This document shows positions 34,001-49,238 of a stretch of DNA of 64,000 nt, in pieces. Each line of letters opens with the position of its first letter. The stretch's first letter is position 1. Source of the DNA: Marinitoga aeolica (GTDB taxonomy: Bacteria; Thermotogota; Thermotogae; Petrotogales; Petrotogaceae); assembly GCF_029910535.1 (NCBI RefSeq), contig NZ_CP069362.1:2294001-2358000 (forward strand). Reading direction: 5' to 3'. Made by a program: the position numbers and the translations under genes. The notes beneath the pieces were generated by a model. That model did no database searches, was not told the origin of the DNA, and worked only from the letters and a program-made list of their open reading frames with translations.

Positions 34001-34210
34001 GAAGTATTAGATTATAAATATTCTGATTTAAATAATCCAAATAAAATAGAAGATTATAAATTCCAATTACAATTTTATATGTATCTTTTAAAAGATTTTG
34101 GAATTCCTCAAAAAGGATATATTATTAGTTTAAAAAATGGTAAGATAATAGAAGTTGAATATGATGAAGAATTTGAAGAAAAATTAGAATCAAAAATTAA
34201 ACCATTATAG
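31052..34210 (+). CDS. addA: AddA-like UvrD-family helicase-nuclease
   Basis: This 1052-residue superfamily 1 helicase shows Walker A SASAGTGKTYTITQYYL (about residue 22), an AVTFTNKAAGEMKERIL motif Ia, YIIVDEYQDTNFLQ (motif II), VGDRKQSIYRFRGAD (motif III), VLTIHKSKGLEFPIVIL (motif V) and LLYVAITRPKEM (motif VI). A C-terminal nuclease domain contains MIFGVPDRVVF and IEVLDYKYSDL, the PD-(D/E)XK residues. It is the motor/nuclease partner of the preceding gene and the last gene of the operon. The pair plays the RecBCD role in Thermotogota and Firmicutes. Confidence 0.88.
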   Translation: MSNTLNIEEMKKNLDKNYFISASAGTGKTYTITQYYLAILEKYEKENNADIIQNILAVTFTNKAAGEMKERILEEVDKKLEKGKNYKYWRQIKTNLNRAWIMTIDSFCSRILRENNIVIGVDPNFTIINELRMEIEIEKAVYNTLKILFKLYENPENDLDELTNFLNDRKFIVKKYLKEIIDNKDKFSNSLKYILKELKLDTFKKVLSDTLKNWRTEMKLSSVPEFDLINKDFNDVLWLFKIAVLIAQEIYYSYTNDQYQFDFKGVLDKTLETLDEERIKEKYQRKFKYIIVDEYQDTNFLQKALFDKIHNDNNYIFYVGDRKQSIYRFRGADVSVFAVTEQEFDENSRFQLNVNRRSNASIVEFANAFSKDVLFNKELLESYYNAEYKNVFNNLLYSEDKDRSEYEKKTINDIIPSIGNDDKYRIKYIFVSKNTDNKGYVEYETIAKTINSLIGKKMKFRKRENGKIIFEEREIKYNDIAVLVKELKNSEEPIRNAFKKYNIPFYILGSKSFYNKNEVQTVFSALNAVQNPHNDFNFTGYMMSLMVGMNFEKLNELVKIKKEKNYKSLYETAEKENILSKAERKGLEVLKKYVELKYYLKPTIILKGLITENNYFSKLTILPDSHYAIANVKKLINEAEKYNTLAVSFSELIRLLRKTSELTESEAAIEDEKQNVVRVLTIHKSKGLEFPIVILSGLDKKSQIDSEEKIDEDMKISTESVEFSLPDNNIRYFVLKKLFLKKIKSMDISSLSMQDKIKIELGEKYLKMFDINKFLEDTEELRLLYVAITRPKEMLIPIIVEKEKNKSNTLSDLFKKVKYEKIDIISFNDLKYEIKHKEEKIKDKIKDIKEENLKDLTDFAYKKYIAPTYIINELKREENSEDLTDENYIKVDLNDFFSEQEFILKGTELHSLMESINSFSQIKNLIKLKILPEELDNSLIKRLFSYKNFKTEWRLVKRKVINDREYMIFGVPDRVVFDENNNIEVLDYKYSDLNNPNKIEDYKFQLQFYMYLLKDFGIPQKGYIISLKNGKIIEVEYDEEFEEKLESKIKPL

Positions 34211-34243
34211 TTTAATAAATATTCTAAATATGTTTAATTATGC

Positions 34244-34435
34244 TGTCCAAAAAGTTTAAAAGAAGTGAAGACTCGAAGATTGCCTTTAAAAATTATGAAT
34301 GAAAGCCGTCAAAAAAACAGGATGTTTTTTTGAGTGAAGCTTTTGCATGGATGCAAAATCTGAACGACGGCTGGGAATGAATAATTTTTAAAGATTTGCA
34401 ATCAAGCTGTCTGAACGATTTTAACTTTTTGGACA
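34244..34435. repeat. 192-bp imperfect palindromic element with two internal hairpins
   Basis: The outer arms TGTCCAAAAAGTT (34244-34256) and AACTTTTTGGACA (34423-34435) are perfectly complementary. Further pairing blocks lie inside: GATTGC / GCAATC, TTTAAAAATTAT / ATAATTTTTAAA and AGCCGTC / GACGGCT. The centre holds two perfect hairpins: AAAAAAACA-GGA-TGTTTTTTT (34311-34331) and TTTTGCAT-GG-ATGCAAAA (34341-34358). There is no ORF. It resembles a MITE-like or structured-RNA element; it lacks a recognised family and only one copy is in the window. Confidence 0.7.
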
Positions 34436-34456
34436 ACCTATGTTTAATTTATACAC

Positions 34457-34512: not shown

Positions 34513-34603
34513 GGAGAGATGGCCGAGCGGTCTAAGGCGCACGCCTGGAGAGCGTGTGACGGGCACAACCCGTCCGTGGGTTCAAATCCCACTCTCTCCG
34601 CCA
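34513..34603 (+). tRNA. tRNA-Ser (anticodon GGA)
   Basis: This 91-base class II tRNA has a 7-bp acceptor stem GGAGAGA / TCTCTCC and an anticodon stem CACGC / GCGTG with loop CTGGAGA, giving anticodon GGA (reads UCC/UCU). A long variable arm is formed by GACGGGCACAACCCGTC, followed by a T-loop GGGTTCAAATCCC, discriminator G and encoded CCA. A strong terminator follows, so it is a single-tRNA transcript. Confidence 0.97.
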
Positions 34604-34799: not shown

Positions 34800-34884
34800 A
34801 TGTATTAACATAAATATAACTACCAAGAAAATAAATCTTAAATTTAATTTGTTAAACTACGGAAAAGTTAATATGTTTTACGAA

Positions 34885-35051
34885 CAAACGGAGGCGCAAC
34901 TGAGATGAGTAATCTACCTATCGCTTGGGTAGGCTTGGGGTAGGTGAAAGGCGAGGTTGCCGAAGGATGTAAGATTTACCCGTCTTACATGCCTGGTTGT
35001 ATAGGGAATACCTATGCGACTGTCGCATGATTGCATGCGGAGAGCCGTTTG
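34885..35051 (+). promoter_or_regulatory. Lysine riboswitch aptamer (L box)
   Basis: The conserved core matches the Thermotoga maritima lysine aptamer block by block: ACGGAGGCGC, GAGATGAGTA, GGTGAAAGGCGAGG, GCCGAAGG, GGGAATACC, ACTGTCGC and GCGGAGAGCCGT. P1 is closed by CAAACGG (34885-34891) with CCGTTTG (35045-35051). It precedes asd and the whole lysine operon. Lysine binding is expected to favour the terminator just downstream and shut off synthesis. Confidence 0.95.
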
Positions 35052-35085
35052 GGATAATATGTTATATATAATATTATTTCAAATA

Positions 35086-35133: not shown

Positions 35134-36117
35134 ATGAAAGTTGGTGTAGTTGGTGCAACAGGTGAAGTTGGAAGAACAATGGTTAAGGTATTAGAAGAAA
35201 AAAATATTGATATTAATGAATTGCGATTATTTGCAAGTAAAAAATCTGAAGGAAAAGAGATTAAATTTAAAGATAAAATATATTATGTTGAAGAATTAAC
35301 TGAAGAAAAAATGAAAGAAAAATATGATTATTTATTATTTTCTGCTGGAGGTTCCGTTTCTAAAAAATATGCTCCAATTGCGAGTGAATATGGTAATACT
35401 GTAATAGATAATTCTTCAGCTTTTAGAATGGTGAATGATATACCTTTAGTTGTTCCAGAAATAAATGGAGATATTATAAAAGGATATAGAGGAATTATTG
35501 CAAATCCTAACTGTTCTACTATTCAAATGGTATTAGCTCTAAGAAATGTAGAAAAAGAATTAGGGATTTCAGAAATTTTTGTAAGCACTTATCAAGCAGT
35601 TTCTGGAGCTGGAAATAAAGGTATAAAAGAATTATTAGATCAACAAAATGGTATAAATAATATAAATCATTTTCCAGAAATAATAAACAATAATGTAATA
35701 CCGATAATAGGACCTGTATTAGAAAATGGATTTACAGAAGAAGAAATGAAAATGGTAAATGAAACAAGAAAAATATATGATGATTATGGTATTAAAGTTT
35801 ATCCAACAGCTGTAAGAGTTCCTGTATTATACGGACATTCTGAAAGTATTACTTTTAGGGTAAAAAAGAAATCAACATTAGAAGATGTTAAAAAGCTTTT
35901 ATCTTCAGTAGATAATGTAGTATATACAGATGATTTAGTAACTCCTATAAACATAGCTGGATCAGATATTACATATGTTTCCAGATTAAGGCAAATGGAC
36001 GAAACAACTTTTTTAATATGGGTTGTAGCAGATAATGTTAGAGTTGGAGCTGCAACAAATGCTGTAAGAATATTATTAAAACATTATGAATTAAATAATA
36101 ATAAAAGAGATGAGTGA
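35134..36117 (+). CDS. asd: Aspartate-semialdehyde dehydrogenase
   Basis: This 327-residue NADP-dependent enzyme makes aspartate semialdehyde from aspartyl phosphate. It shows the Rossmann motif GVVGATGEVGRTMVKVL, the catalytic Cys127 in IIANPNCSTIQM, and the C-terminal RVPVLYGHSESITF motif that includes the active-site His. It is the first gene behind the lysine riboswitch and terminator and has the RBS GAGGAGGGAG. The eight genes 35134-43009 overlap or are within 16 bases of each other, so all are under the switch. Confidence 0.95.
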   Translation: MKVGVVGATGEVGRTMVKVLEEKNIDINELRLFASKKSEGKEIKFKDKIYYVEELTEEKMKEKYDYLLFSAGGSVSKKYAPIASEYGNTVIDNSSAFRMVNDIPLVVPEINGDIIKGYRGIIANPNCSTIQMVLALRNVEKELGISEIFVSTYQAVSGAGNKGIKELLDQQNGINNINHFPEIINNNVIPIIGPVLENGFTEEEMKMVNETRKIYDDYGIKVYPTAVRVPVLYGHSESITFRVKKKSTLEDVKKLLSSVDNVVYTDDLVTPINIAGSDITYVSRLRQMDETTFLIWVVADNVRVGAATNAVRILLKHYELNNNKRDE

Positions 36118-49185: not shown

Positions 49186-49203
49186 ATACTTTGTCAACAA
49201 TCT

Positions 49204-49238
49204 AATATGCCGGTGTTTTACCGGCATATTTTGTTTTT
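49204..49238 (+). terminator. Terminator
   Basis: Perfect 11-bp stem AATATGCCGGT / ACCGGCATATT with a GTTTT loop and TTGTTTTTAT tail. Confidence 0.92.

What the first reader, a model, noticed from the sequence alone, without database searches (positions are those of the whole stretch)
34244..34435. 192-bp cruciform-like element with two internal hairpins
Perfectly complementary 13-base ends, several further complementary blocks in register and two perfect apical hairpins give a four-arm structure with no ORF, between a recombination-nuclease operon and a tRNA gene. It could be a MITE-type mobile repeat or a folded RNA. Compensatory mismatches between the arms would tell them apart. No recognised family fits.
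Basis: seen in the sequence. Interest (0 to 1): 0.62.

Follow-up and report, generated by a model that had tools for sequence, protein, structure and literature searches.

The report
Transposable repeat carrying CsrA-type RNA hairpins
The folded element is one of about forty related copies in this Marinitoga genome: a small gene-less transposon that carries a known RNA shape (TwoAYGGAY) thought to catch the global regulator CsrA, so a regulatory RNA appears to have been spread by jumping DNA.

Summary
The element (34240-34438) has perfect 13-bp inverted ends, an 11-bp target-site duplication and a fold far more stable than shuffles. It is not unique: a model of its core finds 41 copies in its own genome, copies in all seven genomes of the genus (Marinitoga), and divergent ones in two other Thermotogota families. 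Its ends match a ~1-kb insertion sequence with a DDE_Tnp_1 transposase in the same genus, so it is a MITE. 'No recognised family fits' is wrong: the core passes the Rfam cut-off for TwoAYGGAY (RF01731), a candidate CsrA-binding RNA. 94 of 105 distinct copies keep GGA in both loops, 24-26 nt apart; 22 of 32 base pairs show changes on both sides. All 11 carrier genomes have csrA. New here: TwoAYGGAY RNA travels as a multicopy transposable element in Thermotogota, in several arm types, one of which sits against terminators and duplicates the whole terminator hairpin. Shown: family, copies, covariation, duplications, shared ends. Inferred: transcription, CsrA binding and its effect.

The parts
34240..34438 (+). 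whole MITE-like element; + is the strand that folds with GGA loops and tandem G.A
   Evidence: copies; bounded by direct repeats
34229..34239 (.). left target-site duplication TATGTTTAATT
   Evidence: the sister copy at G000:C1:1548098 has a different duplication (TTCTTTTAATT)
34439..34449 (.). right target-site duplication TATGTTTAATT
34244..34256 (+). left terminal inverted repeat TGTCCAAAAAGTT
   Evidence: shared with the ends of a DDE_Tnp_1 insertion sequence
34423..34435 (-). right terminal inverted repeat
34265..34272 (+). outer tandem G.A motif, 5' side (GTGAAGAC; partner GTCTGAAC 34409-34416)
34409..34416 (+). outer tandem G.A motif, 3' side
34285..34393 (+). conserved core (covariance model R1)
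   Evidence: 108.9 bits
34271..34410 (+). Rfam RF01731 TwoAYGGAY match, 47.8 bits, cut-off 43
34304..34310 (+). junction stem P1, 5' side (pairs with 34366-34372)
   Evidence: 6 of 7 pairs with changes on both sides
34366..34372 (+). junction stem P1, 3' side
34311..34331 (+). hairpin 1, GGA at 34320-34322 in the loop
34338..34361 (+). hairpin 2, GGA at 34349-34351 in the loop; tandem G.A motif at its base (34334-34339 with 34360-34365)

Best explanation
The element is a MITE: a gene-less derivative moved by the transposase of a ~1-kb DDE_Tnp_1 (IS5/IS982-like) insertion sequence whose terminal repeats it shares, inserting into AT-rich sites with a duplication of about 9-13 bp. Its interior is a TwoAYGGAY-class RNA domain (Rfam RF01731): on the + strand it folds into a long stem containing tandem G.A pairs, topped by a three-way junction that presents two hairpins with GGA in the loop about 25 nt apart. 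Most likely, when transcribed, one CsrA dimer clamps both hairpins; dozens of dispersed copies would then act together as CsrA decoys, or place CsrA on the transcripts they lie in. Shown: the fold class, its conservation on one strand, copy number, duplications and shared ends. Inferred: transcription, CsrA binding, titration or local regulation, and present mobility.
For: Rfam RF01731 at 47.8 bits, above the cut-off of 43; other copies also pass. 41 core matches in the own genome; 11 of 103 Thermotogota genomes, all 7 of the genus. 22 of 32 base pairs with changes on both sides, 150 double-change cells against 51.5 in shuffles. G.U pairs exceed A.C mismatches 63 to 22 on the + strand, so one strand is selected. 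GGA in both loops in 94 of 105 distinct cores, the neighbouring base free to vary, spacing always 24-26 nt. TwoAYGGAY was independently predicted to bind CsrA and to hold tandem GAs (PMC4333381). csrA is present and keeps the residue equivalent to E. coli Arg44 (YREE); it is in all 11 carrier genomes, and none of the 25 genomes without a csrA match carries the element. MITE: flanking direct repeats average 9.3 bp against 5.4 in mispaired flanks; insertion-sequence copies with PF01609 and matching ends, one decayed copy in the own genome.
Against: No transcript or binding data. Copies do not favour the sense orientation relative to neighbouring genes: 48 antisense against 26 sense in tandem gene pairs (crude ORF calls). 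No convincing promoter within the window copy. The csrA association is weak once shared ancestry is considered, because most csrA-less genomes belong to one family. The loop of hairpin 1 in the window lacks one base of strict AYGGAY (it is AGGAU). No intact transposase was found in the own genome.
Confidence: 0.7

Rival explanations
1. Plain MITE whose fold matters only as DNA: the palindrome is kept because the transposase or replication needs inverted arms, and the TwoAYGGAY resemblance has no RNA-level role today.
For: Terminal repeats, duplications and shared ends with an insertion sequence; stable DNA fold; no sense-orientation preference; no clear promoter in the window copy.
Against: One strand is favoured: G.U 63 against A.C 22 and tandem G.A whose complement is T.C. 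GGA loops and their 24-26 nt spacing are kept across genera while stem sequences change. A DNA-only MITE would not be expected to match an RNA family known from other phyla.
Confidence: 0.2
2. Structured RNA domain bound by a protein other than CsrA (for example the transposase or a double-strand RNA-binding factor), serving the transposon, e.g. to keep its own mobility low.
For: Conservation of tandem G.A arms and junction goes beyond what two CsrA hairpins need; the domain recurs in elements with unrelated arms and ends.
Against: ANGGA loops in a dimer-compatible pair are the signature of CsrA sites; carriers always have csrA.
Confidence: 0.15
3. Chance palindrome or assembly artefact.
For: None found.
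Against: Copies, covariation and an Rfam match.
Confidence: 0.01

Closest known systems
TwoAYGGAY RNA (Rfam RF01731)
   Same: Two adjacent hairpins with (A)YGGAY loops, a basal stem with tandem GAs; score above the gathering cut-off.
   Different: Described from human gut, Clostridiales and gammaproteobacteria (PMC2864571); here in Thermotogota, multicopy, between transposon ends. I found no report of it as a mobile repeat.
CsrB/CsrC/RsmX/RsmY/RsmZ CsrA-sequestering sRNAs
   Same: Pairs of hairpins with GGA in the loop.
   Different: Those are sRNA genes with many sites at one locus in gammaproteobacteria; this is a two-site unit at dozens of loci, and binding is untested.
MITEs of DDE (IS5/IS982/IS4-like) insertion sequences
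   Same: Ends shared with an insertion sequence, about 200 bp, no ORF, target-site duplications, high copy number.
   Different: The interior is a conserved structured RNA family, not a relic of the transposase gene.
IS1272/TnSha1 (IS1182 family)
   Same: The related C-type elements also choose terminators and other hairpins as targets.
   Different: IS1272 deletes part of the hairpin and makes no duplication (PMC4923244); C-type elements duplicate the whole hairpin, 17-32 bp, and no PF13751 transposase is in the genome.

Membership tests
TwoAYGGAY (RF01731) | covariance-model score at or above the gathering score of 43 bits | tested here: met
   47.8 bits over the whole model
TwoAYGGAY (RF01731) | two adjacent hairpins with AYGGAY loops | tested here: met
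   Hairpin 2 is AUGGAU; hairpin 1 of the window copy is AGGAU, one base short of strict AYGGAY, but AYGGAY in most other copies
TwoAYGGAY (RF01731) | tandem G.A pairs in a stem | tested here: met
   34334-34339 with 34360-34365 and 34265-34272 with 34409-34416; found by a crude pattern in 84 of 105 distinct cores; feature reported in PMC4333381
CsrA-binding RNA | paired hairpins with GGA in the loop, csrA in the genome | tested here: met
CsrA-binding RNA | a transcript that binds CsrA | not testable with these tools
   needs RNA-seq and a binding assay
MITE | terminal inverted repeats, no ORF, many dispersed copies | tested here: met
MITE | target-site duplications | tested here: met
   19 of 23 copies share 8 bp or more, against 6% of mispaired flanks
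MITE | ends shared with an autonomous insertion sequence | tested here: met
   Copies in G040, G041, G043, G044 and a decayed one in G000 with CTGTCCAAAAAGT-type ends and a PF01609 transposase; the IS subfamily is unsettled, all NCBIfam scores below cut-off
MITE | empty site or observed transposition | tested here: inconclusive
   The window locus is not syntenic in the six other genomes of the genus
IS1182-type element | DDE_Tnp_1_6 (PF13751) transposase in the genome | tested here: not met
   no match

The most novel reading that the evidence does not exclude
TwoAYGGAY is in general a transposon-borne CsrA decoy: in Marinitoga and relatives dozens of mobile copies form a dispersed, redundant counterpart of CsrB, so that transposition itself sets the size of the pool of CsrA-binding sites.
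Probability: 0.3. Interest if true: 0.82.

Novelty: new variant of a known kind. Interest (0 to 1): 0.62.

Why it matters
CsrA-sequestering RNAs had been identified only in gammaproteobacteria when the CsrA prediction for TwoAYGGAY was made (PMC4333381). This result gives that Rfam family of unknown function a genetic context, extends it to Thermotogota, and shows a candidate regulatory RNA being carried by an insertion-sequence system. It makes the CsrA prediction directly testable in Marinitoga strains with many natural copies.

Tried and rejected
Rfam gathering-mode scan of the window: no match for the element; the permissive scan of the short stretch found it. IS1182-type transposase in the own genome: none. 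An autonomous element with C-type ends (CAGACTGTTGACAAA): none seen among 42 end matches. Phages, plasmids, viral contigs: no match. Outside Thermotogota: a strict hairpin-2 pattern over the genome collection gave 14 stretches, all Thermotogota; it would miss divergent members. Internal promoter: C-type ends carry TTGACA 16-17 nt before AATAAT/TAATAT, but the window type does not and one C-type copy (G000:C1:1383392) has its core inverted relative to the ends, so it is not claimed. Sense 3'-UTR role: not supported by orientation counts. Empty-site comparison at the window locus: no synteny. Literature on Marinitoga MITEs or mobile TwoAYGGAY: nothing found in the library.

Full report
What is there. 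The stretch 34244-34435 has the features described: perfect 13-base inverted ends (34244-34256 with 34423-34435), further complementary blocks in register, and two apical hairpins. As RNA the + strand folds at -68 kcal/mol, z = -7.3, and no shuffle does as well. It lies between the stop of an AddA-like gene at 34210 and tRNA-Ser at 34513. The mobile unit is 34240-34438, because the 11-bp TATGTTTAATT stands on both sides (34229-34239 and 34439-34449).

Copies. The element against its own 2.44-Mb genome gave 53 matches: one copy 98% identical at 1548098 with different flanks, a group at about 76%, and many that share only the core. The window copy and its sister carry different flanking repeats (TATGTTTAATT and TTCTTTTAATT), each matched within its own copy. 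A covariance model of the core finds 41 copies in the own genome and matches in 11 of 103 Thermotogota genomes: all seven of the genus (1 to 37 copies each in that search) and, with lower scores, four genomes of two other families. A pattern scan over named records placed copies in Marinitoga lauensis, Mesoaciditoga MAGs and another Thermotogae MAG, and nowhere else. The genus name Marinitoga for the window rests on this scan together with G040 having the contig length of M. lauensis.

Fold. On 22 core sequences, 92.8% of cells pair, 22 of 32 pairs have changes on both sides, and there are 150 double-change cells against 51.5 in shuffles; sliding the partner by one column drops pairing to 52% or less. 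On 105 distinct cores from many genomes, 63 G.U pairs stand against 22 A.C mismatches, as expected if the + strand is the selected one (sequences are related, so the formal probability is only a guide). The arms are interrupted by 2x2 tandem G.A mismatches (GTGAAG/CTGAAC and similar); their complement would be T.C, so again the + strand is the folding strand (inference from the sequence). Hairpin 1 has GGA in its loop in 102 of 105 distinct cores, hairpin 2 in 97, both in 94, and the distance between the two GGAs is 24-26 nt in every one of those 94, while the base before GGA may be T, C, A or G or missing.

Known family. A permissive Rfam scan identifies the core as TwoAYGGAY, RF01731, 47.8 bits against a gathering score of 43; other copies in the genus also pass. 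The family was listed from human gut, Clostridiales and gammaproteobacteria as probably an RNA and probably not cis-regulatory (PMC2864571). Gardner and Eldai noted its tandem GAs and predicted that it binds CsrA (PMC4333381). The loops found here agree with the known CsrA recognition element (GGA in a small hairpin loop, in pairs; general knowledge, also PMC4333381). The own csrA (G000:C1:1634671) keeps the arginine equivalent to E. coli Arg44 (the comparison with E. coli is from memory). All 11 carrier genomes have csrA, and none of the 25 genomes without a csrA match carries the element; this is consistent but phylogenetically clustered.

Mobility. In 23 copies with the window's arm type, the flanks share a direct repeat of mean length 9.3 bp (19 of 23 at least 8 bp); mispaired flanks share 5.4 bp and reach 8 bp in 6%. 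A pattern search for the ends led to a ~1-kb insertion sequence with the same ends (GTGTCCAAAAAGT on both sides in G041; CTGTCCAAAAAGTCTAA in others) and a DDE_Tnp_1 transposase in sister genomes, and a decayed copy in the own genome. Its subfamily is near IS982/IS5 but below every curated cut-off. The window element is therefore best read as a MITE of that insertion sequence. An empty site could not be shown because the locus is not syntenic in the other genomes.

Related arm types. Some thirty further elements have other ends (CAGACTGTTGACAAA...TTTGTCTACAAACTG). Most stand at the base of terminator-like hairpins, and in 20 of 31 the direct repeat is the whole palindromic hairpin, 17-32 bp. 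The same ends also enclose a different core without GGA loops. Their transposase was not found; the IS1182 type is absent. IS1272 of that family also targets hairpins but deletes part of them and makes no duplication (PMC4923244).

How it most likely works. Shown: a transposon-type element that carries a conserved one-strand RNA domain. Inferred from the family: a CsrA dimer binds the two hairpins of each transcript. Whether this titrates CsrA, guides it to neighbouring transcripts, or serves the transposon is open. Orientation counts do not favour sense insertion (48 antisense against 26 sense in tandem gene pairs, crude gene calls), and the window copy has no convincing promoter of its own, so transcription is the weakest step.

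Verdict. What is new is the combination: TwoAYGGAY RNA as the cargo of a multicopy transposable element, in a phylum where it had not been reported in the sources I could search.

Noticed in passing
G000:C1, e.g. 676837 (+), 1315061 (-), 1390899 (-), 1552688 (-): C-type elements (ends CAGACTGTTGACAAA / TTTGTCTACAAACTG, mostly 233-370 bp) stand at terminator-like hairpins and duplicate the complete hairpin (17-32 bp), so a hairpin remains at each end; no transposase with these ends was found.
   Followed up: partly
G000:C1:2428579, 1953320, 358024, 1682710, 1446744: The same C-type ends enclose a different core (CTTTCGCTTCGCGAAA ... TTTTTAATGCTGCGCATTAAAAA) without GGA hairpins, and B-type arms are nested inside C-type arms: cores seem to be exchanged at hairpin bases.
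   Followed up: partly
G000:C1:1383392-1383624 (L040): A C-type element whose core is inverted relative to its two distinguishable ends.
   Followed up: no
window 49190-49204: Degenerate C-type end (TTTGTCAACAATCTA) directly before a terminator-like hairpin ATGCCGGTGTTTTACCGGCAT.
   Followed up: no
L013, G000:C1:1867967-1868044: The 5' half of a window-type element is fused to an ORF; the GGA of hairpin 1 has become an AGGAGG ribosome-binding-site-like sequence before an ATG.
   Followed up: no
window 34881-35055: Lysine riboswitch (RF00168, 110 bits) upstream of genes that begin with an aspartate-semialdehyde dehydrogenase-like ORF at 35134.
   Followed up: no
L075, L084, L092 (G012); L077, L085, L093 (G102): Deeply divergent homologues with unrelated arms and ends in other Thermotogota families; not listed by the Rfam scan, but with GGA hairpins and a GCGAAGC-type tandem G.A motif.
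   Followed up: partly
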